A stretch of 58,606 nucleotides of DNA from Chloroflexota bacterium. GTDB lineage: Bacteria; Chloroflexota; Anaerolineae; Promineifilales; Promineifilaceae. The position numbers were made by a program, and so were the translations under genes. Position 1 is the stretch's first letter. The number at the start of each line of letters is the position of its first letter. The stretch is from NCBI GenBank assembly GCA_003696605.1, contig RFGV01000213.1, positions 1 to 58,606 on the forward strand. Reading direction: 5' to 3'. Positions 412-58,352 of the stretch are shown here, one piece after another. The notes beneath the pieces are model-generated. The model was not told where the DNA came from. It made no database searches and was given only the letters and a program-made list of their open reading frames with translations.

Positions 412-1560
412 TTAGGGGCGACCACCAGGCCGACCGCCACCACCGGGCAGGGTGATTCCGCCACCCAGAGAACCCGGCTGCGGAATTTGTGCTTGTAGGG
501 TGTTGAGGCTGGCGCGAGCGTTTTGCAGTTCTCCTTGTGCCAGTTGTGTATTCAGGGTGTTGATGTTGTTGATAAGCATGTCTGCCTGGGGGAGTGGATT
601 GGCTTCCAGGCTGGCGATAATGTTTGCCCCTAGTTGGGCTAGAGATTGCATTTCAGTGGTGGAGATGGTGTTGTCGGTGAGGGCGTTGTTGGCAGTTGTG
701 GCGTAGTTGAGCAACATGGTGATGGTTTCTTCGGCGTTAGTGGCTATTGTGTCTGGTTGGGTATTGGTTAGCAGATTCATCAGGTCGTCCTGAACGGCCG
801 TTACATTTTCTTGAATTTGTCCGGCAGTTGCTTGGGCCAGTTCCGCCCAGGTTGAGGCTTGTGTGGCTACCTGGTTGGCAACTGTTTGGGCTTCGGTTGC
901 AGCTTGTTCCAGTTGAGCGATGGTTTCTTCGGCCAAGGTAAGCCCGGCTTCGAGGGTGGTATTGATTTCTTCCAGAACGGCCGTCATTTGTGCCAGATTT
1001 TCATTTAGCAAGGCCAATTCTTCTTCAATGGCAACCAACTCAACAAGGATGGCATCGGCCGTTTCCCCATAGAGCGCGTAGTAAGTTTCAATCATTGCAT
1101 CTAGCGCCGTTAATGTTTCTTCTGTCAGAGAAACGTATAGTTCAATTGTTTCTACTTCTTCAGCTGTTACTTCACCGTCGCTAACGGCCGTTTCTGTGGC
1201 TTCGGCATATGCTTCAGTATTCGCCTCTGCTTCTGCCGAAGTTTCTTCAATGAGTACAACCAACTCCTCTTCAGAATAAGTGGCATATTCCGGTTGTGGG
1301 GTGGCACTGGCCAGTGCTTCATTAACGGCCTCTTCAACAGCGGCATCAACTGCTTCCTCAACGGCCTCTTCAACGGCCGTATCCACCATTTCTTGCAACA
1401 TGGCTTCGGCCGTGGCTGTGGCTGCAACCGCTGCATTGACAGTTGCCTGAACATCCGGCGTTGGCGGGGGAGGGGTATTTGCTGGTGCAGAAGAACAGGC
1501 GGCCAATAAAAATGTTCCCAATAAGCTTAAAAAAGTGAAGACGATTCCGATACGATGCAT
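412..1560 (-). CDS. Ala/Glu-rich coiled-coil lipoprotein, function unknown
   Basis: 382 residues from an ATG at 1560 with GGAGG seven bases upstream; a longer frame upstream lacks such a site. The N-terminus is a lipoprotein signal: charged start, hydrophobic core, then LAAC with the acylated Cys at residue 22, followed by a Pro/Thr spacer. Residues about 45-85 contain near-perfect repeats of the type V-E/D-x-A-V-E-E-A. The middle is almost entirely Ala, Glu, Thr, Leu and Gln with heptad character, as expected for a long surface coiled coil. The C-terminus is Gly/Pro/Arg-rich. No enzymatic motif is visible. It is divergent from a TetR gene across a region carrying two similar palindromes, so it may be the TetR target. 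It could be a structural envelope or adhesion protein; this is a guess from composition. Confidence 0.8.
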   Translation of the reverse strand: MHRIGIVFTFLSLLGTFLLAACSSAPANTPPPPTPDVQATVNAAVAATATAEAMLQEMVDTAVEEAVEEAVDAAVEEAVNEALASATPQPEYATYSEEELVVLIEETSAEAEANTEAYAEATETAVSDGEVTAEEVETIELYVSLTEETLTALDAMIETYYALYGETADAILVELVAIEEELALLNENLAQMTAVLEEINTTLEAGLTLAEETIAQLEQAATEAQTVANQVATQASTWAELAQATAGQIQENVTAVQDDLMNLLTNTQPDTIATNAEETITMLLNYATTANNALTDNTISTTEMQSLAQLGANIIASLEANPLPQADMLINNINTLNTQLAQGELQNARASLNTLQAQIPQPGSLGGGITLPGGGGRPGGRP

Positions 1561-1585
1561 GATACAACCTCCAAAATTTATTTTC

Positions 1586-1600
1586 TGGACAAATTGTCTA
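1586..1600. promoter_or_regulatory. Operator-like inverted repeat 1, lipoprotein/TetR intergenic region
   Basis: TGGACA-AAT-TGTCTA: two half sites of the form TRGACA in inverted orientation, three bases apart, 25 bases upstream of the lipoprotein start. The same half sites recur at 1669-1682 next to the TetR gene start. A pair of matching palindromes in a divergent region next to a TetR gene is the usual picture of autoregulation plus control of the neighbour. The binding itself is inferred. Confidence 0.5.
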
Positions 1601-1668
1601 ATTTTGGGCACAATTTACCTGAGTTGAACCAGATAAGTCAATAGCCAATTTTTATTACTGTAAATTAA

Positions 1669-1682: not shown

Positions 1683-1696
1683 GAAATGAGGCGAAC

Positions 1697-3795: not shown

Positions 3796-3810
3796 TAGTA
3801 TGACAAGATA

Positions 3811-8385: not shown

Positions 8386-8871
8386 ATGGACGAACTAGAT
8401 CGTGCAATTTTGACGTTTTTGCAGAAAGACGGCCGTATGCGGTTTACAGAAATTGCCAAAGAGTTGGGAGTTTCTGAGGGGACGGTACGGAATCGGGTAG
8501 CCCGTTTGCAAGCGGAGCATGGTTTGCAGATTGTGGGCATGATTGATCCGCGGCAGATTGGGTATGATGCCCCGGCGATTATTGGGGTGGCGGTGCAGTC
8601 ACCTTATTTGGAATCGGCGGCGGCGGAGATTGCGACGTGGCCGGAGGTAAGTTATCTGATTATGGTGTCGGGTGAATATGATTTGATGGTTGAGGTGATG
8701 TGTCGGGATCGGGAGCATTTGTCTGAGTTTTTGCGGGAGCGTTTGCAGAAGGTGCCGGGTGTGCAGCGTACTCAGACGTTTATGATTTTGCATACGTACA
8801 AGATGGCGTCTGGGGCACGACCTGTATTAACCAAGGAAGTGGAGAAGAGTCCAGAAGATGGAAAGGTTTGA
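8386..8871 (+). CDS. Lrp/AsnC family transcriptional regulator
   Basis: 161 residues from ATG 8386 (AAGAGGG upstream; a TTG four codons earlier is less likely). Residues 1-50 are the Lrp winged helix-turn-helix: LDRAILTFLQKDGRMRFTE, then AKELGVSEGTVRNRVARL. The remainder is the alpha-beta RAM/AsnC ligand-sensing domain (VSYLIMVSGEYDLMVEVMC, GVQRTQTFMILHT). Proteins of this type sense amino acids or related small molecules and form oligomers on DNA. The gene overlaps potA by 14 bases, so it is co-transcribed with the transporter and probably controls both this operon and the divergent amine catabolic operon. The effector is unknown; a polyamine-derived amino acid such as GABA is plausible. Confidence 0.92.
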   Translation: MDELDRAILTFLQKDGRMRFTEIAKELGVSEGTVRNRVARLQAEHGLQIVGMIDPRQIGYDAPAIIGVAVQSPYLESAAAEIATWPEVSYLIMVSGEYDLMVEVMCRDREHLSEFLRERLQKVPGVQRTQTFMILHTYKMASGARPVLTKEVEKSPEDGKV

Positions 8872-9961: not shown

Positions 9962-10831
9962 ATGCAAGCCATCATCAGACGTTCTCCTGCTATCCGTGCC
10001 TGGATTTTACTGGCTCCGGCGGTCGCCTGGTTGTTCATCTTTTTCCTCGCTCCACTAGTCATTGTGCTGATCTACAGTTTTTTAGAACGAGGCACATATG
10101 GTGGTGTTGTCTGGCAGCCAACATTGGAAAACTACCGGCGTGTTTTCGATGCCCTTTACTTCAATACCTTTACCCGTTCTGTGTACATCGCCGTTGCCAC
10201 CACTGTCATTTGCCTCATTCTGGGCTTTCCGATGGCCTATTTTATTGCCACTCGTCCGCAAAAGATACGCAATAGCCTCTTATTGGCACTGATGATTCCC
10301 TTCTGGACCAATTTTCTCATCCGTACCTACGCCTGGCTAACCTTGCTTCGCACCAACACAGGGCTTATCAATGTCACCTTGCTTTCGTTGGGGATAATTG
10401 ATGAGCCATTGCCGTTATTTGGTAACGACTTCGCCATTATTTTGGGGCTGGTGTATGGCTGGCTGCCGGATATGGTTTTGCCAGTTTACGCGGCTTTGGA
10501 ACGGTTGGATCGGAGTTTGTTGGAAGCAGCCCAAGATTTGTATGCAGGTCGATGGCAGGTGTTTCGCCGTGTCATCTGGCCGCTTTCGTTGCCGGGCGTT
10601 GTGGCTGGTTCTATGTTGGTTTTTATTCCTTCGCTGGGTGCGTTTGTTACACCAGCTATTTTGGGTGGGGGGAAATCGTTGATGATTGGCAATATTATCA
10701 GTAATCAGTTTTTGGCCGCACATGATTGGCCGTTTGGATCGGCACTTTCCATGTTGATGATGGTGTTTATGCTGGTGGCTACGCTGATTTATTTCCGGGC
10801 AGTTAATCGAGAGGGAGGTGCGGGATTATGA
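9962..10831 (+). CDS. potB: Polyamine-type ABC transporter permease, PotB
   Basis: 289 residues with about six hydrophobic helices; the first is AWILLAPAVAWLFIFFLAPL. The EAA loop that contacts the ATPase is visible as EAAQDLYAGRWQVFRRVIWP near residue 180. The family's FWTNFLIRTYAWLTLLR segment is well kept. It forms half of the membrane channel with PotC. It starts three bases after the potA stop, with a GGAGG-type site inside potA, and its last four bases overlap the potC start (ATGA). Confidence 0.92.
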   Translation: MQAIIRRSPAIRAWILLAPAVAWLFIFFLAPLVIVLIYSFLERGTYGGVVWQPTLENYRRVFDALYFNTFTRSVYIAVATTVICLILGFPMAYFIATRPQKIRNSLLLALMIPFWTNFLIRTYAWLTLLRTNTGLINVTLLSLGIIDEPLPLFGNDFAIILGLVYGWLPDMVLPVYAALERLDRSLLEAAQDLYAGRWQVFRRVIWPLSLPGVVAGSMLVFIPSLGAFVTPAILGGGKSLMIGNIISNQFLAAHDWPFGSALSMLMMVFMLVATLIYFRAVNREGGAGL

Positions 10832-11733
10832 CGGCCGTTACCAAACCCACAACCACAATCCTTCCCGAAAGCCGAGCCAGTCGTCAGGAACGAATCAAAA
10901 CACAATTGGCTACATTGGGATTGACCGGGTACGGAATTCTGGCTTATCTTTTCCTGTATCTTCCTATTATTATTCTGGTTATCTTTTCTTTTAACGATTC
11001 TCGTTCCACGGCCCAATGGGCGGGATTTAGCACTGCCTGGTACGTGGAGATGATGCAGGATAATCAAATAATTATCTCGCTCTGGAACAGTTTATTTGTC
11101 GCGATTGTTTCTACTGCGATTTCCACTGTGTTGGGGACGTTGGCGGCAATGGCTATGGAACGTTATCGGTTTCGGGGGCGGCTGGTGATGGATGCAATAT
11201 TGTATTTGCCCATCATCATCCCTGATATTGCCATGGCCATTATGTTGCTGTTGTTTTTCAATATCAGTGGGATTGGATTTAATACATGGCGGATAGAACT
11301 GGCTGGGTTGCGTTTGTCTGTGCCATATTCGGTAATTATCGGGCATGTGGCGTTTAATATTTCTTTTGTGGCGGTTGTTGTACGGGCACGCCTGGCGCAT
11401 ATGGATCGCACATTGGAAGAGGCAGCCAGTGATTTGTATGCCAATGCGTGGCATACATTTTGGCGGGTGACATTGCCGATGTTGATGCCAGGGATTATTG
11501 GGGGGGCATTGCTGGCGTTTACATTGTCGCTGGATGATTTTGTGATTACTTTTTTTACCGCCGGACCTGGTTTTAATACGTTGCCGGTACGGGTGTTTGG
11601 CATGATTAAGAAGGGTGTGACTCCCAAGATTAATGCGGTTTCGTCGTTGATGTTGGCGGGTTCGCTGGCGTTGGTGCTGATTTCGATTTTTCTTCGACGT
11701 GGTGATGACAGGGGTGGGATTGAGATTGTGTAG
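10828..11733 (+). CDS. potC: Polyamine-type ABC transporter permease, PotC
   Basis: 301 residues with about six transmembrane helices (first YGILAYLFLYLPIIILVIFS). The EAA loop reads EEAASDLYANAWHTFWRVTL. It pairs with PotB. The start ATG at 10828 overlaps the potB stop by four bases and is followed at once by an ACGGCCGT site (10831-10838), so the palindrome sits in codons 2-4. Around that site the plus strand changes from 13 G and 2 C in the preceding 30 bases to 1 G and 14 C in the following 30. The N-terminal 30 residues are polar and longer than in many PotC proteins. Confidence 0.92.
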   Translation: MTAVTKPTTTILPESRASRQERIKTQLATLGLTGYGILAYLFLYLPIIILVIFSFNDSRSTAQWAGFSTAWYVEMMQDNQIIISLWNSLFVAIVSTAISTVLGTLAAMAMERYRFRGRLVMDAILYLPIIIPDIAMAIMLLLFFNISGIGFNTWRIELAGLRLSVPYSVIIGHVAFNISFVAVVVRARLAHMDRTLEEAASDLYANAWHTFWRVTLPMLMPGIIGGALLAFTLSLDDFVITFFTAGPGFNTLPVRVFGMIKKGVTPKINAVSSLMLAGSLALVLISIFLRRGDDRGGIEIV

Positions 11734-11848: not shown

Positions 11849-12997
11849 ATGAAGAAATTTGCAAGTTTGTGTACAACTCTGATGTTGTTGCTGGTCCTGG
11901 GGCTGGTGGCCTGTACCAGCGGTGGGGAATCTGCCGAGACAGAAACAGAAGTCCCGGCCTCTAACGAAGCCGTGACTGAAACAGAAAGTACTGGAGAAAC
12001 GGCCGTTGAGCCAGCCACTGAAATTGTCATGTACAACTGGTCTGAATACATTGACCCGGAAATATACACCTTGTTTGAACAAGAAACTGGCATCAGAATC
12101 GTCGAAGACAATTTTTCCAGCAACGAAGAAATGCTGGCCAAGCTCCAGGGTGGTGCAACCGGCTACGCCCTCATTGTTCCCTCTGACTATACTGTTAGTA
12201 TTATGAAGGAAGAAGGAATGCTGGCCAAACTCGACCACGCCAATATCCCCAACCTGAGCAATTTGTCTGATGAATTCAAAAATGTGCCATTCGATCCCGG
12301 CAATGAATACTGCGTACCATACCAGTGGGGCACAACTGGTATTGGTTATCTGGATGGCGTCGTTGAAACACCTACCAGTTGGTCTGTCATCTTTGAGCCA
12401 GACCCGAACGCCCCTTACTACGGCCGTTACACCATGCTCGATGACGTGCGCGAGTCATTCGCTGCTGCCCTCATCTATCTGGGTTACGACATCAACACAA
12501 CCGACGAAAAACAACTGGAAGAAGCAAGAGACCTGCTCATCAAAGCCAAAGCCGGACTGGCTGGATACGACAGCGACACCTTTGAAGACCTGTTAGCTGC
12601 CGAAGAAAATGTCCTGGCTCATGGATGGAACGGCGACTTTCTGGTAGCCCAGGAAGAAAATGAAAACATTGCCTACACCATTCCCCAGGAAGGTGGCGTT
12701 ATTTGGGTAGATAACGTGTGTATTCCAGCCACTGCCTCACCCGAAGAAAAACTGGCCGCCGAAATGTTCATCAACTTCCTACTCGATCCCGAAATCGGTG
12801 CCATGTTGTCAGAATTCAACTACTATGCCAGCCCCAACAAAGCTGCTGAAGACATTCTGGGCGAGGAGTTTTTGAGCGATCCGGCCGTTTATCCCCCGGC
12901 CGAAGTTCGGGAACGGTTGCAATTTATCAAGCCAGTCGGGGAATTCGAGTCTGTTTACCAACGCATGTGGGACGAAGTCAAATCAGCTAATCCTTAA
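11849..12997 (+). CDS. potD: Polyamine-type periplasmic/surface substrate-binding lipoprotein, PotD
   Basis: 382 residues. A lipoprotein signal ends in LVAC with the lipidated Cys at residue 22, followed by an acidic Thr/Glu linker. The mature part begins IVMYNWSEYIDPEIYTLFEQ, the usual opening of PotD/PotF proteins, and contains TGYALIVPSDYTVSIM and YQWGTTGIGY, which line the polyamine site in the family. It would capture spermidine or putrescine outside the membrane and hand it to PotBC. It lies 115 bases after potC with its own AGGAGGAG site, and is followed by a strong hairpin terminator, so it is the last gene of the transport unit before the aminotransferase gene. Confidence 0.92.
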   Translation: MKKFASLCTTLMLLLVLGLVACTSGGESAETETEVPASNEAVTETESTGETAVEPATEIVMYNWSEYIDPEIYTLFEQETGIRIVEDNFSSNEEMLAKLQGGATGYALIVPSDYTVSIMKEEGMLAKLDHANIPNLSNLSDEFKNVPFDPGNEYCVPYQWGTTGIGYLDGVVETPTSWSVIFEPDPNAPYYGRYTMLDDVRESFAAALIYLGYDINTTDEKQLEEARDLLIKAKAGLAGYDSDTFEDLLAAEENVLAHGWNGDFLVAQEENENIAYTIPQEGGVIWVDNVCIPATASPEEKLAAEMFINFLLDPEIGAMLSEFNYYASPNKAAEDILGEEFLSDPAVYPPAEVRERLQFIKPVGEFESVYQRMWDEVKSANP

Positions 12998-19381: not shown

Positions 19382-19420
19382 CACAAAACAATCCATTGCA
19401 TCACAAATAAAGAGAAAACC

Positions 19421-25975: not shown

Positions 25976-26036
25976 ACGTACAGGCTACCCCTGAATAGCC
26001 AGCGTAATTTTGTGAGATACTGGAGACTGGTAACGT

Positions 26037-26255: not shown

Positions 26256-26320
26256 TGTCAGGCCTCTTTGGTTGACAAAGTGGTTACCAAAAATGGGATT
26301 CTGTTGTGGAATAGACTTTT

Positions 26321-41806: not shown

Positions 41807-42817
41807 ATGGCTGAACAAAGGAAGTTGTGGATTAAGCGTGTGGTAAATGTTGGTGTGCCTCTGCTTCTGGTGGCACTGGTGTTTTATTTGGGTAACCAGA
41901 AGGGATTTACCTGGCAGCAGTATGCTCAGTTGGTGGTGGATGGGGTGCGTGGTGGCGCTATTTATGCGCTGATTGCTCTGGGGTTTGTGACGGTTTATAA
42001 CGTGACGGGGATTATTAATTTTGCTCAGGGGGCGTTTGTGATGTTGGGGGCGATGCTGGCAGCGACGGTTTATGAGTTGCCGCTGCCTTTTGGGGATGGT
42101 TGGAGGTTGGTGGTAGCGTTTGTAACGGCCGTTTTACTTACTACTCTTGTTGGTGTCCTCATCGAACGTCTGACTATCTACCCCGCACGCCATTCAACGC
42201 CTCTCACACTCATTATTATCACGGTAGGCGTTTATATCGCCATTCAGGGTATTGCTTTGTTGGTTTGGGGAACTAACGCCCTGTCGTTTCCGGCATTCAC
42301 CACTCTGGGGACTGTGGACAAAACCATTCGTGTGGGCGGGGTGGTGTTGAAGGCACAGAGCTTTTGGATTTGGGGCACAACGGCCGTTATTCTTGTCCTG
42401 CTTGCCTGGTTTTTTGACCGCACCATGTTAGGCAAAGGGTTACGCGCCTGTGCCATCAATCGACAGGCAGCACGACTAATGGGCATCAGCACACATCGCA
42501 TGTCCATGCTGTCATTTGCCCTGGCGGCTGCTTTGGGAGCAATTGGTGGCATTGTTCTGGCCCCGGTTACGCGCCCAATTTACGACATGGGATTACGGTT
42601 AGGTCTCAAGGGATTTGTGGCTGCCATTATGGGTGGGTTGGTTAGTTCACCAGCGGCTGTGTTAGGTGGGTTGTTGTTGGGTGTGGTGGAAAATGTGGCG
42701 GCTGGTGTGACCAAGTCGGGAATTAAGGACATTTTTGCGTTTATCATTCTGATTTTGATTTTGTTGTTCCGGCCACAGGGGATTTTGAGCAAGGCGCAAG
42801 AAACGGAAAAGGTGTAA
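41807..42817 (+). CDS. livH: Liv-type ABC transporter permease, LivH family
   Basis: 336 residues from ATG 41807; the longer upstream frame runs through the hairpin and is rejected. The family signature GGAIYALIALGFVTVYNVTGIINFAQGAFVMLGA is recognisable (given here in parts: GGAIYALIALG, NVTGIINFAQGAFVM). About eight hydrophobic helices follow, with ACAINRQAARLMGIS as the ATPase-contact loop. It forms the channel with LivM. Two ACGGCCGT sites (about 42124 and 42380) coincide with clear changes from G/T-rich to C/A-rich codons. Confidence 0.9.
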   Translation: MAEQRKLWIKRVVNVGVPLLLVALVFYLGNQKGFTWQQYAQLVVDGVRGGAIYALIALGFVTVYNVTGIINFAQGAFVMLGAMLAATVYELPLPFGDGWRLVVAFVTAVLLTTLVGVLIERLTIYPARHSTPLTLIIITVGVYIAIQGIALLVWGTNALSFPAFTTLGTVDKTIRVGGVVLKAQSFWIWGTTAVILVLLAWFFDRTMLGKGLRACAINRQAARLMGISTHRMSMLSFALAAALGAIGGIVLAPVTRPIYDMGLRLGLKGFVAAIMGGLVSSPAAVLGGLLLGVVENVAAGVTKSGIKDIFAFIILILILLFRPQGILSKAQETEKV

Positions 42818-42821: not shown

Positions 42822-43976
42822 ATGGCAAGACGATTGTTACGGGAAAACGGCCGTAATCTTACCGGCATCATCATCTTGAGCGTAATTGTGTGGTTTATTG
42901 GCTGGTTTGAAACAACCCAGCCAGGGGGACGTGCTTTCTCCAGTCTCACCAACGGCATTGTTACATTCGATACCATCACCCGTATCGGTATCCTGACTAT
43001 CATTCTGGTTGGCCTTAATTTGCTAATGGGATATGCCGGTCAGGTCTCATTGGGTCAGGCTGCATTTTACGGTATTGGCGCATACTTCTCGGCCATTTTA
43101 ACCACGCGGGCGGCCCTGTTGGGGTTGCCAGAAACCATTACCGGGCAATGGTGGTGGCCCTGGCTGCTTATGCCAGGGGGCATGTTGTTCACTGGTGCAT
43201 TTGCATACCTGGTTGGACGGCCGATCTTACGCCTCAAAGGGCACTACCTGGCAATGGCTACACTCGGTTTGGGCATTATGGTAAACATTATTTTTCGTGA
43301 AAATTTTGGCTTTCGGTTAAATACACTTGACCTGACCGGTGGCTCGGATGGTATTCACAGTATTCCCCGCCTGGCGATAGGCAGTTTTGAAATCTGGCCC
43401 ATTCAACGCTACTACTATCTGGTCTGGTTGCTGGCCATCGGGGGGATCATTCTGGCATTAAATATTGTCAATTCCCGTGTGGGGCGGGCATTGCGCGCCA
43501 TTCACAGCAGTGAGCTGGCCGCAGAAGTAATTGGGGTTGACACGGCCAACTACAAGACAACGATTTTGGTAATTAGTGCCATGTATGCCAGTCTGGCTGG
43601 CAGTTTGTACGCGCATTTTCAGGTGGCTGTGTCGCCAGTCCCCTTTAATTTTGTTGGTTCGCTGGAGCTGGTGGTGATGGCGGCTGTTGGGGGAATGGCA
43701 TCTATTTGGGGCGCACCGTTTGGGGTGGCGGTGATTTTGATTTTGCGTGAGGTGTTGCGGGCACGTTTGCATTTGTTGATTGAAGGGGCAAGTGGTGAAC
43801 ATGAGGTCGTGGCGTTTGGCATTATTTTGGTGCTGATAATGATTTTCTTGCCAGATGGGGTTATTGCGGGGATGCGACAGGGGTGGGAAAAATGGCGTGG
43901 CAGTGGGCGTAAAACGGCCGTTTCCCCCGTCGCCACCCAACCCGCCAACACCAGCAAAGAGGTGCAACAACCATGA
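42822..43976 (+). CDS. livM: Liv-type ABC transporter permease, LivM family
   Basis: 384 residues. Family features: ILVGLNLLMGYAGQVSLGQAAFYGIGAYFSA, seen as NLLMGYAGQVSLGQAAFYGI, followed by RLKGHYLAMATLGLG, and the cytoplasmic loop RALRAIHSSELAAEVIGVD. About nine to ten membrane helices. The C-terminal 25 residues are polar and Thr/Pro/Ala-rich, created by an ACGGCCGT site at 43914 after which the plus strand turns strongly C-rich (18 C to 3 G in 30 bases). It overlaps livG by four bases. Confidence 0.9.
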   Translation: MARRLLRENGRNLTGIIILSVIVWFIGWFETTQPGGRAFSSLTNGIVTFDTITRIGILTIILVGLNLLMGYAGQVSLGQAAFYGIGAYFSAILTTRAALLGLPETITGQWWWPWLLMPGGMLFTGAFAYLVGRPILRLKGHYLAMATLGLGIMVNIIFRENFGFRLNTLDLTGGSDGIHSIPRLAIGSFEIWPIQRYYYLVWLLAIGGIILALNIVNSRVGRALRAIHSSELAAEVIGVDTANYKTTILVISAMYASLAGSLYAHFQVAVSPVPFNFVGSLELVVMAAVGGMASIWGAPFGVAVILILREVLRARLHLLIEGASGEHEVVAFGIILVLIMIFLPDGVIAGMRQGWEKWRGSGRKTAVSPVATQPANTSKEVQQP

Positions 43977-48740: not shown

Positions 48741-48851
48741 GTGTTGACGCCTGTTTGACGTGACATTGACAGGGTGGGGGTATAGTTGCAGGTGTATGAT
48801 TGTTTTGTTGAGTAGGCACAGCTTTGTGCATTTTGAATGAGGAGGTTACGA

Positions 48852-50321
48852 ATGGGTGCTCGTCATGGCGCGGATGTGATACAACGGTTGCAGGAACACC
48901 CGATGGAGATTTGGCATCGGGGTCACCAGGTGCAGGATGTGACAACGGAGCCGGGATTTGCGAATGGGGTAAAGAGTCTGGCTGAGTTGTATGATGTGCA
49001 GTGGGAAGAGCCGGATTTGATGTTGTTTGATTCACCGACGACGGGGGAGAAGGTCGGCCGTTCTTTTATGATTCCCAAGACGAAAGAAGAATTGATGAGT
49101 GTGGGGCGCATGATGAAACGGTGGGCTGATCATGCGATGGGGATGATGGGGCGTGCGCCAGATTATCTGAATCGGGCTATATCGGCATTTGCCGGTGGGG
49201 CGGATTTTTTGAGCCAGCAGGATCCGCGCTTTGGCGACAATATTCGAAATTATCATGCCTATATGCGTGAGAATGATCTTTGCCTGACGCATACTCTGAT
49301 TAATCCGCAGGCAAATCGAAGTGTGGGGCCGGCCCGGCAGGCAGATCCGTTTTTGGCAGCGCGGGTGAAGGAGGAAACAGATGCGGGAATTGTGATCAAA
49401 GGAGCCAGGATGTTGGCTACTTTGCCGATTTCTGATGAGATTATGGTTTTTCCTTCGACGTTGTTGCGAAGTACGGAGGAGGATGCGCCGTATGCGTTTG
49501 CGTTTGCTATTCCGAACGCGACGCCGGGATTGAAGTTTATTTGTCGGGAGAGTGTGGATTACGGCCGTAATCATTATGACCATCCGCTGGGTTCCCGCTT
49601 CGAAGAAATGGATGCGGTGGTAATTTTTGATGATGTGTTTGTGCCCTGGGAGCGGGTGTTTATGTATCGGGACGTAGAAGCATGTAACAAGGCTTATATT
49701 GCTACCGGGGCAGTGGTGCATATGGCCCATCAGGTTGTATGCAAGAATATTGCCAAGACGGAGTTTTTATTGGGGTTGGTTTCGTTAATGATTGATGCAA
49801 TTGGTATTGAAAGATTCCAGCATATTCATGAGAAAACGGCCGAAATTTGGATCAATCTCGAAACCATGAAAGCTTTCCGGCGCGTGGCAGAAGTAGATGC
49901 CCAACTTAATGAGTTTGGGGTAATGACGCCTGCCTGGGACCCATTGGATGCTGCCCGGAATCTGTATCCCCGTCTTTACCCGCGTATGATCGAAATTGTC
50001 CAGCAAATTGGGGCCAGTGGTTTGGTGGCTATGCCGACGCTGGCCGATGTGAATGGCCCGCTGGCAGAAGAGATTAAAAAGTATTATCAGTCAGCACGAC
50101 TGGATGCACTGGAACGCATTCCGCTTTTCCGGTTAGCCTGGGATACAGCGTTATCTGCTTTTGCATCTCGCCAGGTACTGTACGAGCGGTATTTCTTTGG
50201 CGATCCGGTGCGGATGGCAACAGCACTTTTCCATAATCATGATCGTACAGAGTACATGGATAAAGTACGGGCATTTCTGAAGCGAAATATAGAGGAAGCA
50301 ATGGAGGGGGAACCGGCATAA
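48852..50321 (+). CDS. hpaB: 4-hydroxyphenylacetate 3-monooxygenase, oxygenase component
   Basis: 489 residues from ATG 48852 (GAGGAGG upstream). It matches HpaB in size and in conserved runs: DPRFGDNIRNYHAYMRENDL, HTLINPQANRS, FVPWERVFMYRD, and the acyl-CoA dehydrogenase-like helical C-terminus. It uses FADH2 from HpaC and O2 to hydroxylate 4-hydroxyphenylacetate to homoprotocatechuate. The reductase gene follows after 25 bases, and the dioxygenase after that. Related HpaB-family enzymes (4-hydroxybutyryl-CoA dehydratase fold, other phenol hydroxylases) are possible, but the context supports this call. Confidence 0.9.
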   Translation: MGARHGADVIQRLQEHPMEIWHRGHQVQDVTTEPGFANGVKSLAELYDVQWEEPDLMLFDSPTTGEKVGRSFMIPKTKEELMSVGRMMKRWADHAMGMMGRAPDYLNRAISAFAGGADFLSQQDPRFGDNIRNYHAYMRENDLCLTHTLINPQANRSVGPARQADPFLAARVKEETDAGIVIKGARMLATLPISDEIMVFPSTLLRSTEEDAPYAFAFAIPNATPGLKFICRESVDYGRNHYDHPLGSRFEEMDAVVIFDDVFVPWERVFMYRDVEACNKAYIATGAVVHMAHQVVCKNIAKTEFLLGLVSLMIDAIGIERFQHIHEKTAEIWINLETMKAFRRVAEVDAQLNEFGVMTPAWDPLDAARNLYPRLYPRMIEIVQQIGASGLVAMPTLADVNGPLAEEIKKYYQSARLDALERIPLFRLAWDTALSAFASRQVLYERYFFGDPVRMATALFHNHDRTEYMDKVRAFLKRNIEEAMEGEPA

Positions 50322-50346
50322 CGGCCGTTTCCCACACAGAATACCC

Positions 50347-50883: not shown

Positions 50884-50933
50884 ACGACAGCATGTAACCG
50901 TGTGCTAGTAACACACAAAAGGAGGAGGAAACC

Positions 50934-51926: not shown

Positions 51927-52708
51927 TGGTGGGCAGGTGTAGGGGAATGCCAATAGCAGAGTTGTCTCAGGTGTCGCTATATTATGAATTGTATGGCGCG
52001 GAGGATGCACCGCCATTGGTGCTTTTGCATGGAGCAACGGAGACGTTTCGGACTGGTTGGTATAAGCAGATTGAGGCGTTTTCTGCGCAATATCGGATTG
52101 TTGGGCCAGATTTGCGGGGACACGGCCGTTCTTCCAACCCGGCCAACAAGCTAGACCTGCGCCAGATGGCCGACGACATACGGGAATTGCTTCACTACCT
52201 CGGCTATGAAAAAGCCCATGTCTGCGGTTTTAGTGGCGGTGCATCTGTCGCTCTCTTTCTGGCCGTACGTCATCTTTCATGTCTGGAATCCCTCATCCTT
52301 GTCAGCAACAACTTTGAACTGGACAAAGTGCGAACAGGCAACGCCCAATTTTGGAACATAGAGCGAATTCTGCGAGATCACCCCAAATGGTGGGAATCTC
52401 TGACAAAAATGCATCAGGTATCACCAGGTCAGTTACTTAAGTGGTGGGAAGAAGAAGACGTAAAACGGCCGAATTTCAAGCCTGCCGACCTGACCCACAT
52501 CACTGTTCCCACCCTGGTCATGGGCGGTGACCGCGATCCCATCATCCCTTTGGAACAAACCATCAAACTCTACCACGCCCTACCCAACGCCTACCTCAGC
52601 ATCCTGCCCGGCATGGGACACGGCGCACCACGTTACCGCCCCCACTTATTCAATCGCATTGTGCTGGATTTTTTGGAATACGTGCAAAAAAAGGAGGCCA
52701 TACCATGA
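51926..52708 (+). CDS. Alpha/beta hydrolase
   Basis: 260 residues (or 253 from the ATG at 51947). Alpha/beta hydrolase fold with LVLLHGATET (oxyanion region), GPDLRGHGRS, nucleophile Ser103 in GFSGGA, acid in GGDRDPI and His in GMGHGAP. The substrate is unknown. It sits between the ring-cleavage dioxygenase and phenylacetate-CoA ligase, coupled at both ends (one-base and four-base overlaps), so it should belong to aromatic breakdown, for example hydrolysing an ester, lactone or enol-lactone intermediate. Meta-pathway C-C hydrolases belong to this fold but would not be needed for an aldehyde ring-cleavage product. Confidence 0.85.
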   Translation: MVGRCRGMPIAELSQVSLYYELYGAEDAPPLVLLHGATETFRTGWYKQIEAFSAQYRIVGPDLRGHGRSSNPANKLDLRQMADDIRELLHYLGYEKAHVCGFSGGASVALFLAVRHLSCLESLILVSNNFELDKVRTGNAQFWNIERILRDHPKWWESLTKMHQVSPGQLLKWWEEEDVKRPNFKPADLTHITVPTLVMGGDRDPIIPLEQTIKLYHALPNAYLSILPGMGHGAPRYRPHLFNRIVLDFLEYVQKKEAIP

Positions 52709-54048
52709 TTTGGAATAAAGAAATGGAAACCATGCCACGGGCAGACATTGAAAAACTCCAGGATGAACGCCTGCGCAAACTGGTAGCTTACGTGTATGAA
52801 CGCGTTCCCTTCTATCGCCAAAAGCTTGAAGCTGCCGGCATTCACCCCGATACCTTTGGTGGTCTTGCCGAGCTGACTAGCCTTCCCTTTACCCGTAAAA
52901 ACGATCTGCGTGACAACTACCCCTTTGGCCTTTTTGCCGTCCCCTTGCCCGAAGTCATCCGAATACATGCCTCCTCTGGTACAACCGGCAAACCAACCGT
53001 TGTTGGTTATACACGTAATGACATCCAAACATGGGCAGAAGTATGTGCCCGCTGCCTTGCTCTTAGTGGTGCTGAACCAGGCGAAATGTTCCAAAATGCT
53101 TATGGCTACGGTCTGTTTACCGGCGGATTGGGAATGCACTATGGAGCTGAACTGATGGGATTAACCGTTATCCCTGTTTCCGGTGGTAATACAGCCCGCC
53201 AGATTATGATTATGCAAGATTTTGGTCCGCATATAATGGCCTGCACACCTTCTTACGCGCTCACCCTTGCTGACAAAATTTTAGAAGAGGGGATTAACCC
53301 CGAAAAACTAAACCTGAAAGTTTTCATTCTGGGCGCCGAACCCTGGACAGAGGCAATGCGCCAGGAACTGGAGAGCAAGCTAAAAGTACATGCCGTCAAT
53401 ATCTATGGCCTGAGCGAAATTATTGGGCCGGGCGTCTCCAATGAATGTGTAGAAGCAAAAGATGGCGCCCATATATTTGAAGACCATTTTATCCCCGAAG
53501 TAATTAACCCAGACACAGGGGAACCGGTGCCGGATGGAGAAGTTGGAGAGCTGGTATTTACCACGCTGACAAAAGAGGCTATTCCACTGTTGCGCTATCG
53601 TACTGGCGATTTGGCTTCAATTACTCGTGAGCCGTGTAAATGCGGCCGTACCCATGCCCGAATGAGTCGTATCATTGGGCGTGTGGATGATATGCTCATT
53701 ATCCGAGGTGTAAACGTCTTCCCCTCCCAGATCGAAGCAGCATTGGTTGGTATTCCTAATATTACGCCACATCACCGCATTATCGTTACCAGAGAAAATC
53801 GCCTAGACCAACTGGAAGTTCAGGTTGAAGTAACCGAGTCTTTCTTCCGTCAAGTTGGTGAAGAAATGTTTATGGGACATCCCGAAAGCGGAGTACAAGA
53901 TTTGAAAGAATTAGAGGGACTGTTATTTGAAGCGTTGCATGATGCATTGGGACTGAATGTGAAAGTTACATTGTTGCCACCCGGACAGGCGCCTCGGAGT
54001 GAGGGAGGTAAGCTGAAGCGAGTAGTGGACAAGCGCCAACTGCAATAG
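52705..54048 (+). CDS. paaK: Phenylacetate-CoA ligase
   Basis: 447 residues. Adenylate-forming enzyme with [11 protein letters not shown] at 88-98 (phosphate loop), [10 protein letters not shown] and YRTGDLA, and the PaaK-type C-terminal domain ([20 protein letters not shown]). It activates phenylacetate to phenylacetyl-CoA using ATP, the entry to the PaaABC epoxidase route. AAGGAGG lies within the end of the hydrolase gene, and the start overlaps its stop (ATGA). The C-terminal half shows an insert-like extension ([19 protein letters not shown]) before the final strand. Confidence 0.93.
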
Positions 54049-54170
54049 GATGGATTTTCGGATACAATATAATTGATTTTTGCCCCAAAAAGTTTAATGC
54101 CTTGTTGAGACCTTTTTGTTCAGTTGCATTATTAAGGGTTGAGGTGGAGCAAGGCAAAGGAGAATTGCCA

Positions 54171-55121
54171 ATGGATCACGATCCCGAATACGAAGAAAAG
54201 CTAAAAGAGTTTGAAGCGCGTATTGCCCGCGGCGAAAAGATTGAGCCAGGGGACTGGATGCCAGAGGAGTATCGTCGGCAGTTGATTCGGATGATTTCGC
54301 AGCATGCACATAGTGAAGTAGTGGGGATGTTGCCTGAAGGAGCATGGATTACTCGTGCGCCTAACTTGCGCCGCAAGCTAATTCTCATTGCCAAAGTGCA
54401 AGATGAGGGAGGGCACGGTCAGTATTTGTACCATGCTGCCGAAACTTTGGGCGCGACCCGTGAGGAGATGATTGAGGCATTGTTGACTGGCCGGGCTAAA
54501 TATTCAAATGTGTTTAATTACCCTACGTTGACATGGGCAGATGTAGGGGTGATTGGTTGGCTGGTAGATGGGGCAGCGATTAAGAATCAGACGATGTTGG
54601 CGCGCTGTTCTTATGGTCCTTATTCGCGGGCAATGGTGCGTATTTGTGCAGAGGAGAGTTTTCATCATAAGCAAGGAAAGGAGATGGTTATTCAGTACGC
54701 GTTGGGGACTCCTAAACAGAAGGCAATGGTACAGGATGCAATTAATCGCTGGTGGTGGCCGGCGCTGATGATGTTTGGACCTCATGATACGGATTCGCCA
54801 AATACACCGGTTTTGGTGCGGTGGGGAATTAAGACGCGTACAAATGATGAGTTGCGGCAAGAGTTTGTAAATGAGATGGTGCCGGAGTTGCATGCGGTTG
54901 GTTTGTCTGTGCCGGATCCGGATTTGTATTATGATGAGACAACGGGGAATTGGGTGCATGGAGAGATTGACTGGGATGAGTTTTGGCGAGTGATTCGAGG
55001 GAATGGTCCGTGTAATAAGGAGCGGTTGGCGGCTCGGCGTAAGGCTCATGAGGATGGTTTGTGGGTGCGGGAGGCGCTGGAGGCGTATGCCCGGAAGCGT
55101 GTGGCGGGGGTTGTGTCATGA
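54171..55121 (+). CDS. paaA: Phenylacetyl-CoA epoxidase subunit A
   Basis: 316 residues from ATG 54171 (AAAGGAG upstream; the longer frame lacks it). It is the catalytic diiron subunit: ferritin-like fold with Glu79-x-x-His82 in [10 protein letters not shown] and Glu162-x-x-His165 in [11 protein letters not shown]. The complex uses O2 and electrons to make ring-1,2-epoxyphenylacetyl-CoA. paaB follows with a four-base overlap. A 122-base gap with no clear terminator separates it from paaK. Confidence 0.94.
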
Positions 55122-55678
55122 GTGATACGCAATGGCCAAGATATGAGGTGTTTGAGCAAGAACGGCCGAATCGGCCGTTTCAGAATGTCGGTTCTGTACA
55201 CGCGCCAGATCCTGAACTTGCTTTGTTAAACGCTCGTGATGTTTTTGTTCGTCGTCCAGATTGTGCTGGCTTGTGGGTTGTGCCGGCTTCGGCCATCTTT
55301 GCCAAAACCGCTGAGGAACTGGAGGCAGATAATACCTGGAAGCAAACGCCTGTTCCTGCTGATGCTCCGTTAGAAACATGGCTTGTCTTCCAAAAGAAAA
55401 CTCAGCGTAATGTCATGACTTATGTGACTCATGTGGGTGAGGTTGAGGCACGCTCGCCAGCAGAAGCGTTGGCCAAAGCGTTGGAGGCTTATGCAACTGA
55501 AAACGTTTATGTTTGGTGGGTGGTGCCAGAACGAATGATTACCCGTTCCAGCCCTGAAGATGCTGGCCCGTGGTTTACCCCAGCCCGCTACAAGACGTAT
55601 AAGTTGCCAACGGAGTATAAAACAGTTACTCAAATTCGGCAGGCAAAAGCCCAGAAACGGAAAAGTAAACAACGATGA
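55118..55678 (+). CDS. paaB: PaaB, double-length (two tandem PaaB-like units)
   Basis: 186 residues from ATG 55118, which overlaps paaA (ATGA). PaaB is usually about 95 residues. Here two units can be seen: WPRYEVFEQ...[19 protein letters not shown]...[10 protein letters not shown] at about 5-70, and LETWLVFQK...[20 protein letters not shown]...[11 protein letters not shown] at about 84-145, followed by a Lys/Gln-rich tail. The units share the order strand - strand - PAxAL helix - W(V)VP. The second ends with the [12 protein letters not shown] stretch that single PaaB proteins have. PaaB is a small scaffold subunit of the epoxidase, so a fused dimer would alter or rigidify assembly. The duplication is read directly; its effect is inferred. 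Confidence 0.85.
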
Positions 55679-56430
55679 ACGAAGAACTGAAACAAGCAAT
55701 TGTGCAAAAGTTAATCGCATTGGCGGATGATGAACTGATTTTGGGGCATCGTGATTCCGAGTGGACAGGACATGCGCCTATTTTGGAAGAAGATATTGCC
55801 TTTGCCAATATTGCCCAGGATGAAATTGGCCATGCGGTTGTCTGGTATTCGCTGGTGCAGGAGCTGACAGGCCAGAAGCCAGACCAATTGGCGTTTTTTC
55901 GGGATGCGCCGGATTTTCGGAATGTGCAGATGGTGGAATTGCCTAAAGAGGATTGGGCGTTTACGATGATGCGTCAGTATCTTTTTGATACGGCCGAATT
56001 AATCTGGCTGGATTCGCTGGCACAAAGTAGCTACAAGCCGGTTGCCGATGCGGCTAACAAGATGCGGAATGAAGAGATTTATCATTATCGGCATACCAGC
56101 ACGTGGATTAAGCGTTTGGGGTTGGGTACAGAAGAGAGTCATCGGCGTATCCAATCGGCATTGGATGCGCTGTGGGGATATGCGTTGCAATTGTTTGTGC
56201 CGTTGCCAGCAGAGTCAACTTTGGTAACGGCCGGTGTTGTGCCTGATCCGGCTGAAGTGCAAGCTCAGTGGGAGGCACAGGTACGGCCGTTTCTTGATGC
56301 TGCCAACTTGCAAATTCCGGATATTACTACACCTGTGACGACTTCCCGCACAAATCACACGACACACCTGGTCGATCTTCTGGCTGAAATGCAATCTGTT
56401 GCCCGTCTTGAACCAGAAGCCGATTGGTAA
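55675..56430 (+). CDS. paaC: Phenylacetyl-CoA epoxidase subunit C
   Basis: 251 residues, ferritin-like. It keeps some ligand-like residues (Glu50-x-x-His53 in AQDEIGHAV; NEEIYHYRH), as PaaC proteins often do while serving as the structural partner of PaaA. It overlaps paaB by four bases. The usual paaD and paaE (iron-sulfur assembly and reductase) do not follow; a SARP-AAA regulator does, so the reductase must be encoded elsewhere. Confidence 0.93.
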   Translation: MNEELKQAIVQKLIALADDELILGHRDSEWTGHAPILEEDIAFANIAQDEIGHAVVWYSLVQELTGQKPDQLAFFRDAPDFRNVQMVELPKEDWAFTMMRQYLFDTAELIWLDSLAQSSYKPVADAANKMRNEEIYHYRHTSTWIKRLGLGTEESHRRIQSALDALWGYALQLFVPLPAESTLVTAGVVPDPAEVQAQWEAQVRPFLDAANLQIPDITTPVTTSRTNHTTHLVDLLAEMQSVARLEPEADW

Positions 56431-56447
56431 AACAGGAAATCTTGAGG

Positions 56448-58352
56448 ATGGATGATGGGGCAGGCAACTGGGGGACAATTTACGGCCGTCTTCGCTTACT
56501 GGGTGATATTACCCTGACACCTGGTCCCGATCCCCATGCTGCCCCCATCCCACTTTCTTCACAACCTACCCAAACACTTCTGGCTTATCTGGCGCTTCAT
56601 TCCAACCAGCCAGTTGATCGCCAACAACTTGCTTTTCTTTTGTGGCCTGATGTACCCGAAACGACTGCCCGCCGTAATCTGCGCCAACATCTACACCGGC
56701 TTCGGCAGATATTCAAAAGTTTGCATTTGCCTGACACAACGCTTGTGGGACGTCGTGGCTATATTACCTTCAGGCCAAACGGCCGTTTCTGGATCGATGT
56801 CCATCAGTTCCAGCAACAAATTAACGACCGCCGTTGGCAAATAGAAGCAATCGAACTCTACACAGGCGACCTCTGTCCTGCCATCCAGGCTGAATGGATT
56901 ACACCATTGCGTACGCGCCTGCGTGAACAATACCTATCTGCCTTGCGCCAACAAATCACCTGGGCCAAAATGCAACGGAATTACCCGCGCGCCCTTCACT
57001 ATGCCATGCGCCTTCTGCAAGCCAACCCGTTACGTGAAAGCTCACACCGCATTTATATGGAAGCCCTTTACTTTAATGGCCTTCGTGCCGAAGCGTTGCG
57101 TCATTACGAAACAATGCGTGAACTCTTCTGGCGAGAATTGCGTGTGCGCCCCATGCCACAAACAATTGAGTTATATCGTCAAATCAAGATGGGGACACTC
57201 CCACGCGATATCCCCCTGCTTTTTACTGAAACCCAGCAAGTGTCTCATGTGCTGACTGCAATGAACCAAATCAGCCAGTCCTTTGTTGCCCGACGGAACG
57301 AGTTGGCTCAACTGGATGAAGCTTTGGCACAAGCAATTGGAGGACGCGGGCGTGTGGTGTTGATAGAGGGGGAAATGGGTATTGGCAAAACGCGGCTGCT
57401 GCATACCTGGCAGGAAGCCCGTCGTCATCTTGTGCTGAATTTTGCAGGCACGTGTGAAATGGCTGAGTGGGGTAGGGGGGGGGCAGCTTTGTGGCAGGCA
57501 TTACGGTTCGGCCGTTTGCATATTAACTGGCAATGGTTTCCAGGTTCCTTGCCCTGGCTTTCTACCGTCCGCTATCTCATCGAAGCTCCCGACTTACCAA
57601 CTGCCCTGGATACCGTACTCACGTCTTTGACACCCACCCAAATATTAGAAATGCTCAACCAGTTCTGGCTAACACTTGTTTCTCGAACTCAGCAGCCAGT
57701 TGTATTACTATTGGACGATTTGCATTGGGCAGATGAGATAACATGGCGTGTGTTAGCTTTTCTGGGGCATCGTTCTGGCCAACTGCCCCTGTTAATTGTA
57801 GGGACAGTTCAGTCTGGCCAGATGCAGAATTATGCCCGGCAAATTGCAGGGGATTTGCGCCGCCAACGACGATTGACTGAAGTGCGTTTGTGGCCACTTT
57901 CTCCGGCAGATACAACGCGCCTTGTGCGTTTGTTGTTGCCAGGTGCTAATTTGAGTGGCGAATTTGCGCGGCGAGTATATCGGTTGACGGAGGGGAATCC
58001 ATTTTTTGTGACGGAATTGGTGCGCGCAGTGGCTGATAACCCGGAGCAGTTGTTAGACGGCCGTTACCAGTGGCCACGCTCTGTTACCACCGTTATTCAG
58101 GCGCGCCTGAATCGGCTGACTGCCGAGAGCCGGGCATTATTGGCGCAGGCAGCAAAACTGGGGAGACGATTTACCTATGAAGCACTGGTTAAAACGGCCG
58201 TGCCCCCTCATACTGAAGCCGATATACTGCACGCACTTGAGGAATGGCTGGCACACGGACTGATACGGCCGTATCAACAACAGTACGAATTTTTACACGA
58301 ACAAATACAAACCGTAGCTCGCCAAATACCCCTATATGCAAAAGAATATTGA
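56448..58352 (+). CDS. SARP/BTAD-type regulator with AAA ATPase domain, second copy
   Basis: 634 residues from ATG 56448; a TTG at 56424 inside paaC is the other option. Same architecture as the protein at 35267: winged helix (LLAYLALHSNQPVDRQQLA, LLWPDVPETTARRNLRQHL), activator domain (NPLRESSHRIYMEALY, ELRVRPMPQTIELY), then ATPase with Walker A GEMGIGKT near 306 and Walker B VLLLDDLHWADE near 420, ending without a C-terminal DNA-binding domain. The two are clearly paralogous but diverged. It lies 17 bases after paaC, so it may be expressed with the paa genes and control them. An ACGGCCGT site near its start and another near its end bracket the gene. Confidence 0.87.
   Translation: MDDGAGNWGTIYGRLRLLGDITLTPGPDPHAAPIPLSSQPTQTLLAYLALHSNQPVDRQQLAFLLWPDVPETTARRNLRQHLHRLRQIFKSLHLPDTTLVGRRGYITFRPNGRFWIDVHQFQQQINDRRWQIEAIELYTGDLCPAIQAEWITPLRTRLREQYLSALRQQITWAKMQRNYPRALHYAMRLLQANPLRESSHRIYMEALYFNGLRAEALRHYETMRELFWRELRVRPMPQTIELYRQIKMGTLPRDIPLLFTETQQVSHVLTAMNQISQSFVARRNELAQLDEALAQAIGGRGRVVLIEGEMGIGKTRLLHTWQEARRHLVLNFAGTCEMAEWGRGGAALWQALRFGRLHINWQWFPGSLPWLSTVRYLIEAPDLPTALDTVLTSLTPTQILEMLNQFWLTLVSRTQQPVVLLLDDLHWADEITWRVLAFLGHRSGQLPLLIVGTVQSGQMQNYARQIAGDLRRQRRLTEVRLWPLSPADTTRLVRLLLPGANLSGEFARRVYRLTEGNPFFVTELVRAVADNPEQLLDGRYQWPRSVTTVIQARLNRLTAESRALLAQAAKLGRRFTYEALVKTAVPPHTEADILHALEEWLAHGLIRPYQQQYEFLHEQIQTVARQIPLYAKEY

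What the first reader, a model, noticed from the sequence alone, without database searches (positions are those of the whole stretch)
794..58272. Base composition flips from G/T-rich to C/A-rich at most ACGGCCGT sites
Seen directly: reading the plus strand, the stretch before the octamer is usually rich in G and T and the stretch after it rich in C and A. Hand counts of 30 bases each side: site 10831, 13 G/2 C before and 1 G/14 C after; site 43914, 13 G/3 C before and 3 G/18 C after. By eye about three in four sites behave so (clear cases also near 9760, 15463, 16213, 22837, 23888, 26986, 30217, 36762, 42125, 50321, 56484); exceptions are near 8430, 12421, 18054, 20655, 31484. The return to G/T-rich occurs between sites without a motif. 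Because the motif is palindromic, the pattern is identical on both strands. Inference: repeated breakage or nicking at the octamer, 5' resection, and C-to-T change on the exposed 3'-ending strands would give exactly this: fewer C left of the site, fewer G right of it. Other options are a micro-terminus of repair synthesis or directional gene conversion. It also explains abrupt codon-style changes inside single genes.
Basis: partly seen in the sequence, partly recalled or inferred. Interest (0 to 1): 0.93.

Follow-up and report, generated by a model that had tools for sequence, protein, structure and literature searches.

The report
Palindromes where DNA strand bias flips
In an uncultured Anaerolineae bacterium and several relatives, DNA base composition switches from G-rich to C-rich at most copies of a very frequent eight-letter palindrome, likely the footprint of a DNA repair process that starts at these sites; HIP1, the long-unexplained palindrome of cyanobacteria, shows a weaker version in some species.

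Summary
The window has 90 ACGGCCGT sites; at 81, G-over-C is higher in the left than in the right 200 bases (mean step 28.7; 10,000 circular shifts: 0.09 +- 2.57, none reach it). The skew climbs linearly between sites and resets at each, whatever the local baseline or gene direction, also at fourfold sites. In rpoB orthologues the step goes with the site. Family members with other octamers (TCGGCCGA, GCGGCCGC, TGCCGGCA) show a same-sign step; four enriched mainly for the inner hexamer do not. Cyanobacterial HIP1 shows a weaker step; E. coli GATC and Chi show none. The enzyme is unknown; MutS and MutL occur, MutH was not found, and the window genome has no C5-methyltransferase hit and no AddB/RecB-length PDDEXK_1 hit.

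The parts
794..58272 (.). Array of 90 ACGGCCGT octamers (palindromic). Start positions: 794, 977, 1184, 1373, 1918, 3199, 3682, 4276, 4448, 4539, 5196, 5303, 6005, 6358, 6557, 8429, 8912, 9683, 9761, 10831, 11746, 11999, 12420, 13488, 15464, 16220, 16299, 16448, 18053, 18467, 20653, 20914, 21137, 21226, 21469, 21697, 21911, 22836, 23171, 23888, 23948, 24464, 24953, 25186, 25452, 25533, 26918, 26986, 27128, 27147, 27653, 28570, 29344, 30215, 30287, 30620, 31484, 31585, 31987, 32575, 32669, 33290, 33345, 34410, 34978, 35065, 35327, 35399, 35627, 36761, 39983, 40119, 42125, 42380, 42847, 43914, 45379, 45462, 45741, 45953, 46479, 49561, 50321, 52122, 56283, 56482, 56779, 58057, 58194, 58265
   Evidence: exact string search and skew step
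10831..10838 (.). octamer with 13G/2C before and 1G/14C after (30 bases); 200-base step +50
43914..43921 (.). octamer with 13G/3C before and 3G/18C after (30 bases); 200-base step +80, the largest of the 18 sites re-checked
36761..36768 (.). octamer; 200-base step +68
42125..42132 (.). octamer; 200-base step +70
50321..50328 (.). octamer; 200-base step +67
23888..23895 (.). octamer; 200-base step +65
52130..56282 (.). longest octamer-free interval of the window (between 52122 and 56283); long intervals as a class carry the strongest skew next to their flanking octamers
   Evidence: positions; dependence on interval length (window alone rho 0.45 over 96 site sides)
8429..8436 (.). octamer that does not follow the rule (step -30)
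20653..20660 (.). octamer that does not follow the rule (step -24)
12420..12427 (.). octamer that does not follow the rule (step -7)

Best explanation
ACGGCCGT is a highly iterated palindrome at which strand composition flips, likely because a strand-specific repair pathway nicks one strand at the octamer and then removes and resynthesises that strand 5'->3' outward, at most to about the next octamer. Shown: over-representation, strong conservation, a same-sign skew step at four different octamers in one family and (weaker) at HIP1 in some cyanobacteria, a linear sawtooth between sites, left and right deviations of opposite sign whatever the local baseline or gene strand, and a better fit of a nearest-site model than of one in which the effect runs on through further sites. 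Inferred: that a nick is made, that excision has one polarity only, that the strand left single-stranded (running 5'->3' into the site) or its copy takes the biased mutations, and that mismatches or lesions in the interval are what call for repair. In this reading the octamers mark out short repair domains, and natural selection or biased repair keeps them. The responsible enzyme is not identified; MutS and MutL are there, MutH was not found.
For: Step in the window and in 192 kb of its genome (194 of 218 sites). The motif changes within the family and the step stays, same sign: TCGGCCGA (G007 z 9.7; G045 z 6.6), GCGGCCGC (G014 z 8.6), TGCCGGCA (G011, 72 sites, z 4.8). TGCCGGCA has C in its left half, so the sign is not a by-product of the motif's own halves. 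Graded response in the window genome: CGGCCG with both flanks right 26.5 (218 sites), one flank T 14.5 (69); the eight other flank classes have 25 sites or fewer each and means from -14.8 to 12.7. Orthologous rpoB: third-position step 0.273 with site against 0.015 without, 62 of 72 site cases; 10 of 11 alignment columns positive, difference 0.178 +- 0.034. Linear sawtooth. Left deviation positive and right negative in all 32 classes of genome by baseline sign or gene strand that were printed, some of the small ones within error, so neither fork direction nor transcription sets the sign. Nearest-site model beats run-through in 6 of 6 data sets. Octamers conserved 38/39 and 18/20 against 48% and 30% for other 8-mers. 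HIP1 on other cyanobacterial contigs: 225/349 positive, z 6.5; only CGATCG of 19 hexamer palindromes steps there. MutS_I in 42/52 and MutL_C in 47/52 family genomes, window genome included. A published model already ties HIPs to mismatch repair (Elhai 2015, PMC4390886; abstract, section 2.3 and the first part of section 3.4 read).
Against: No enzyme found: MutH 0/52, Vsr 8/52 and not in the window genome. E. coli GATC, the best known mismatch-repair nick site, shows no step (875 sites, z -0.2); excision of both polarities there would explain that (recalled) but was not tested. The growth of the skew with interval length is clear only in the window genome, weaker in G001 and G054/G055, and not significant in G043, G007, G014 and cyanobacteria, and a constant process at each site predicts much the same. 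In G054/G055/G043 most of the step lies within 50 bases, which a flank preference of a binding protein could give. Fourfold divergence is not raised near sites. G002, with 6,919 octamers, shows no step in the only 13.9 kb (N-rich) read (20 sites, z 0.2). HIP1 gives no significant step in Pseudanabaena and Leptolyngbya or on two plasmid records (on one of them CGATCG as a whole has z 2.7).
Confidence: 0.4

Rival explanations
1. Programmed or accidental double-strand breaks at the octamer, with 5' resection and damage to the exposed 3' strands.
For: Same geometry and two-sidedness as observed.
Against: C>T is not the change. Breaks at thousands of sites would be costly, yet the sites are strongly conserved. 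Nearest-site behaviour is not expected of free resection. No AddB/RecB-length PDDEXK_1 reading frame in the window genome.
Confidence: 0.14
2. A palindromic Chi-like signal for a RecBCD/AddAB/AdnAB-type enzyme: the enzyme changes at the octamer and leaves a 3' tail.
For: Over-representation and conservation are typical of Chi (recalled); geometry fits.
Against: PDDEXK_1 hits in the window genome lie in frames of 289 and 190 aa only; of 18 genomes searched, only G001 and G045 have such hits in frames over 1,000 aa. E. coli Chi shows no step (50 sites, -1.2 +- 1.5 at 200 bases). The sign does not depend on the baseline strand.
Confidence: 0.07
3. Palindromic DNA-uptake or recombination signal: natural transformation favours octamer-bearing DNA and repeated integration tracts starting there leave the asymmetry and keep the sites.
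For: Density of about one to two per kb and conservation resemble DUS/USS (recalled).
Against: Known uptake signals are not palindromic (recalled); not tested on Neisseria or Haemophilus here; competence genes not examined.
Confidence: 0.12
4. Selection on composition: a protein binding at the octamer, or DNA/RNA mechanics around it, favours a G-rich strand running into the site.
For: Short purine-rich flank (about positions 1-4), a short-range component of near-constant size in G054/G055 and G043, no raised divergence.
Against: Linear ramps over hundreds of bases to the midpoint, strength at fourfold sites and presence in noncoding flanks; no word clearly beyond base composition stands out.
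Confidence: 0.17
5. Restriction-modification target or methylation hotspot: the asymmetry comes from methylated cytosines or from self-restriction.
For: In cyanobacteria HIPs go with methyltransferases of matching specificity (PMC4390886 abstract).
Against: No C5-methyltransferase hit (PF00145) in the window genome or 27 others of 52; PF01555 hits in the window genome are weak and include a DUF1156-like protein with DPPY, whose split hit layout also occurs in G003 and G023, which lack the octamer step; restriction targets are avoided, not enriched (recalled).
Confidence: 0.06

Closest known systems
HIP1 (GCGATCGC) and alternate HIPs of cyanobacteria (Elhai 2015, PMC4390886)
   Same: Palindromic octamers at one to two per kb here, far above expectation, strongly conserved, with relatives that carry a different palindrome; HIP1 also shows the step, more weakly.
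   Different: Other phylum and other octamers; step several times larger (26.4 against 5.6 per 200 bases); no C5-methyltransferase hit in the window genome. Strand asymmetry around HIPs was not seen in the searches made (some lists were capped).
Methyl-directed mismatch repair at GATC (MutH, E. coli)
   Same: Works like the proposed mechanism: palindromic site, nick, excision tract of up to about 1 kb (recalled); MutS and MutL present.
   Different: No MutH hit in 52 genomes; GATC in E. coli leaves no skew step.
Chi sites of RecBCD/AddAB
   Same: Over-represented short signals that set where a 3' single strand begins (recalled).
   Different: Chi is not palindromic (recalled); no nuclease hit of the right length in the window genome; no step at E. 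coli Chi.
Replication and transcription strand asymmetry
   Same: The strand entering the site is G/T-rich, as recalled for lagging-strand template.
   Different: Period of hundreds of bases, anchored to a palindrome, same sign for both baselines and both gene strands.

Membership tests
Highly iterated palindrome (HIP) | palindromic octamer massively over-represented genome-wide | tested here: met
   5,641 copies in 4.92 Mb, reversed-string control 201; 90 in the window
Highly iterated palindrome (HIP) | conserved beyond its surroundings | tested here: met
   38/39 vs 48% (G021-G042) and 18/20 vs 30% (G021-G043); 38/44 counted from G042
Highly iterated palindrome (HIP) | alternate palindromes replace it in relatives | tested here: met
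   TCGGCCGA, GCGGCCGC, TGCCGGCA in G007/G045, G014, G011
Highly iterated palindrome (HIP) | methyltransferase of matching specificity in the genome | tested here: inconclusive
   no PF00145 hit in the window genome; weak PF01555 hits of unknown specificity; PF02086 not searched
MutH-type methyl-directed mismatch repair | MutH nickase | tested here: not met
   PF02976 0 of 52 genomes; E. coli control rings
MutH-type methyl-directed mismatch repair | MutS and MutL | tested here: met
   42/52 and 47/52 genomes, window genome in both
Mismatch repair with entry at a palindrome | strand nick at the site and polar excision | not testable with these tools
   needs nick mapping
Chi / RecBCD-AddAB-AdnAB | enzyme complex present | tested here: not met
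   PDDEXK_1 only in frames of 289 and 190 aa in the window genome; RecC/RecD models not searched; the genome is in 705 contigs
Vsr short-patch repair | Vsr endonuclease | tested here: not met
   PF03852 in 8 of 52 genomes, not the window genome
Replichore skew | sign set by replication direction | tested here: not met
   left and right deviations keep their sign for positive and negative baselines; replication direction itself is not known for these contigs
DNA uptake sequence | preferential uptake of DNA that carries it | not tested
   no experiment or comparison genome at hand

The most novel reading that the evidence does not exclude
Highly iterated palindromes in two phyla are the start and end points of a MutH-free, one-polarity repair system: each interval between neighbouring octamers is a self-contained repair domain, and the sawtooth of strand bias is its record. 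The octamer can be exchanged for another palindrome while the system stays. This would give HIP1 its missing function and explain why thousands of sites are kept at one or two per kilobase.
Probability: 0.33. Interest if true: 0.95.

Novelty: new variant of a known kind. Interest (0 to 1): 0.88.

Why it matters
HIP1 has been known for decades without a settled function (recalled). A strand-bias step that follows the palindrome through motif changes and into a second phylum is a direct, cheap readout of what happens at these sites: it can be measured in any genome, compared with repair-gene content, and tested in culturable cyanobacteria. It also shows a kind of strand asymmetry whose sign depends neither on the regional baseline nor on gene direction, which matters for codon-usage, skew-based origin finding and horizontal-transfer inference in such genomes.

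Tried and rejected
Reverse causality (octamers arise where skew happens to flip because ACGG|CCGT is itself G then C): rejected by TGCCGGCA, whose halves are the other way round yet whose step has the same sign (with the first 25 bases left out it is weaker, 5.8 +- 2.7), and by the orthologue test. Extended palindromes or hairpins: no base-by-base complementarity across the site. Frequent palindromes in general: of 27 hexamer palindromes in the window genome only CGGCCG steps, of 19 in cyanobacteria only CGATCG; the 14 hexamers tested in E. coli give z -1.9 to 2.3. Frequent palindromes of eight non-HIP loci (mostly Actinobacteria): steps from -9.1 to +7.5, no consistent sign. The E. coli Dcm site gave -0.6 (CCAGG, z -0.8) and +2.7 (CCTGG, z 3.5) at 200 bases, small and not pursued. 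Okazaki-start model: predicts the opposite sign for damage to exposed template (inference). A first look at two plasmids suggested that HIP1 has no step; chromosomal loci then showed one, so I changed that view. Polarised substitutions (only positions with agreeing outgroup bases and at least two ingroup bases were counted) hint at A>G over T>C within 100 bases (33 of 1471 vs 19 of 1606), but the numbers are too small after six comparisons; C>G was 7 vs G>C 10. One search shows more G<>C differences within 100 bases in one pair (G043) but not clearly in the closer one. I read interval-length dependence as proof of lesion-directed tracts at first; the algebra of a nearest-site exponential gives the same curve, so I claim only the nearest-site fit (20-base bins are not independent, so likelihood gains are inflated). 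Structure prediction, homologous-protein search, viral-contig scans and Rfam were not used.


Full report
What was checked. The window carries 90 ACGGCCGT octamers. G minus C falls across the site in 74, 77, 80 and 81 of 90 sites for flanks of 30, 60, 100 and 200 bases. The mean 200-base step is 28.7; 10,000 circular shifts of the site positions give 0.09 +- 2.57 and none reaches it. Octamers with one mismatch (56 places) average 5.2, and the other hexamer palindromes with ten or more copies lie between -5.2 and 9.4.

Where it comes from. The window is contig C448 of a 4.92 Mb, 705-contig genome. Its family as held has 52 genomes of 22 genera. The best rpoB match in the named collection is CALEAD010000035.1, 'uncultured Anaerolineae bacterium', whose contig length equals that of family member G018:C35, so the group is Anaerolineae (Chloroflexota). 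ACGGCCGT occurs 5,641 times in the window genome (reversed-string control 201). Among the 24 family genomes, 14 have 2,984 to 12,611 copies, G017 1,727 and G005 1,189, the other eight 14 to 646; the 16 genomes outside the family have 10 to 287.

The motif changes, the step stays. G001 (ACGGCCGT, 116 sites): z 9.6. G007 and G045: TCGGCCGA, observed/expected 62 and 68, z 9.7 and 6.6. G014: GCGGCCGC, 77-fold, z 8.6. G011: TGCCGGCA, 72 sites, z 4.8. G018 through its named record L164: 19 of 22 octamers positive. Members enriched mainly for the inner hexamer CGGCCG show no step at it: G005 (9.7-fold, z -1.1), G019 (8.9-fold, z 0.2), G003 (5.3-fold, z 0.1), G023 (3.6-fold, z 1.7). Mixed cases: G017 (15.6-fold, 9.6 kb) has z 3.0, and G064 (15 kb) has z -0.2 at CGGCCG but 7 of 7 positive at ACGGCCGT (z 2.4). 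Samples from G009, G048, G063, G020 and G060 (7 to 20 kb each) show no dominant octamer and no positive step. One octamer-rich genome, G002, gave no step in 13.9 kb with many N (20 sites, z 0.2). In the window genome CGGCCG with the right base on both sides steps by 26.5, with one flank T by 14.5; the other flank classes are small and scatter around zero.

It is tied to the site, not to the gene. In an rpoB alignment of 30 genomes the third-position step is 0.273 at the site against 0.015 at the same place in genomes without a site within about 300 bases, 62 of 72 site cases positive. The cases share ancestry; by alignment column the difference is 0.178 +- 0.034 with 10 of 11 columns positive.

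Shape. Between neighbours 600 to 3,000 bases apart the window genome's GC skew climbs in a straight line from -0.22 after one site to +0.29 before the next (r 1.00 over ten bins); G054/G055, G043, G007, G014 and cyanobacteria show the same with r 0.93 to 0.98. On sides with no other site within 1,500 bases the skew falls from 0.32 to 0.04 by 800 to 1,000 bases. In G054/G055 and G043 most of it lies within 50 bases with a weak tail. Left deviations are positive and right ones negative in all 32 printed classes of genome by regional baseline sign or gene strand, several small classes within error, and noncoding flanks show the skew too. Spacing is random (CV 0.9 to 1.1). Next to a site in the window genome the skew grows with the empty interval on that side (rho 0.38, 239 sides; opposite interval -0.17); this holds more weakly in G001 and G054/G055 and not significantly in G043, G007, G014 or cyanobacteria. 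A model with the nearest site on each side fits better than one in which effects run on through further sites, in 6 of 6 data sets (window genome: gain 564 against 527).

Spectrum. At fourfold sites of the window genome, 100-150 bases from the octamer, C is 0.20 and G 0.37 against 0.25 and 0.30 to 0.31 beyond 600 bases, with G+C 0.57 against 0.56 and T 0.22 against 0.23. This is a G-for-C exchange, not C-to-T. Polarised substitutions in genus g22 show no C>T excess (ratio 0.97 within 100 bases, 169 substitutions), and fourfold divergence is not raised near the site. The chemical source stays open.

Conservation. G021 octamers are kept at 38 of 39 places in G042, while other 8-mers are kept at 48% and phase-matched flanking 8-mers at 45%; in G043 18 of 20, others 30%; in the more distant G040 7 of 17, others 12%. 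Counted from G042 it is 38 of 44. CGGCCG outside the octamer is kept at 5 of 10.

HIP1. On cyanobacterial rpoB loci the 200-base step is 6.7 +- 1.4 (95 of 140 sites). On other contigs of six cyanobacterial genomes it is 5.6 (225 of 349, z 6.5): clear in Spirulinaceae SM2_1_0 (z 5.1) and Desmonostoc (z 4.4), z 2.6 in Nostoc, not significant in Pseudanabaena (1.2) and Leptolyngbya (1.4), with a single usable site in Lyngbya. CGATCG outside HIP1 does nothing (0.7 +- 2.4). HIP1 on stretches of two plasmid records showed no step. So the step is a property of some highly iterated palindromes in two phyla.

What could do it. MutS_I is found in 42 and MutL_C in 47 of 52 family genomes, MutH in none, Vsr in 8, not in the window genome, C5-methyltransferases in 24, not in the window genome. 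The N6/N4-methyltransferase hits of the window genome are weak: a 667-aa DUF1156-like protein with DPPY, a protein beside a phage terminase gene, and an RlmL-like protein. PDDEXK_1 frames in the window genome are 289 and 190 aa; frames over 1,000 aa occur only in G001 and G045 of the 18 genomes searched. In 200 kb of E. coli K-12, GATC (875 sites) and Chi (50 sites) leave no step.

Mechanism. A nick at the palindrome, removal of the nicked strand 5'->3' away from it, and resynthesis would leave the strand that runs 5'->3' into the site repeatedly single-stranded or serving as repair template, on both sides, fading with distance and bounded by the next site. That gives the sign, the two-sidedness, the ramp and the nearest-site behaviour. 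Excision of both polarities, as recalled for E. coli, would cancel, in line with the GATC result. Elhai (2015) proposed a methyl-directed mismatch repair origin of HIPs from motif counts and methyltransferases; his main text has no occurrence of 'skew' or 'strand asymmetry'. The present data add a directional footprint, and they do not support a 5-methylcytosine version in this family. Breaks, Chi, uptake and compositional selection remain as rivals.

Prior reports. Searches in the open library for highly iterated palindromes with GC skew (0 papers), HIP1 with flank or strand terms, HIP1 alone (15 of 2,297 listed), palindromes with local skew, recombination hotspots with skew and uptake sequences with skew (8 of 297 listed) showed no paper, by title and start of abstract, that reports this; lists were capped, and most subscription journals and all preprints are not covered.

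Noticed in passing
window 14687-32896: Three large genes form a mixed peptide/polyketide synthesis cluster: a formyltransferase-condensation-adenylation-luciferase-like monooxygenase protein, a polyketide synthase with thioesterase, and an NRPS with thioesterase (Pfam).
   Followed up: partly
window 48837-51926: HpaB-type 4-hydroxyphenylacetate hydroxylase and an extradiol-dioxygenase-like protein suggest aromatic degradation; an AMP-binding protein with the AMP-binding_C_2 domain follows at 52705-54048.
   Followed up: no
window 35267-37204 and 56424-58352: Two BTAD/AAA_16 regulators of similar architecture.
   Followed up: no
L264:637-2640: 667-aa DUF1156-like methyltransferase-type protein with a DPPY motif; PF01555 hits of the same split layout occur in frames of 651-728 aa in 12 of the 18 genomes searched, and there was no hit at all in G005 and G009.
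   Followed up: partly
L265:1148-3463: Small stand-alone PDDEXK_1 nuclease next to a CHAT protein with an effector-associated domain (EAD7); PDDEXK_1 frames of 271-306 aa occur in 17 of the 18 genomes searched.
   Followed up: no
G054/G055 and G043 loci, 0-50 bases from the octamer: A short-range component of near-constant size, separate from the long ramp, with G at -3 and -4 in G054/G055; it could be an extended recognition flank.
   Followed up: partly
rpoB alignment columns 339, 362, 1056: Octamers sit at the same codons in many genera, for example in the conserved YGR motif, so codon choice seems to keep the site.
   Followed up: no
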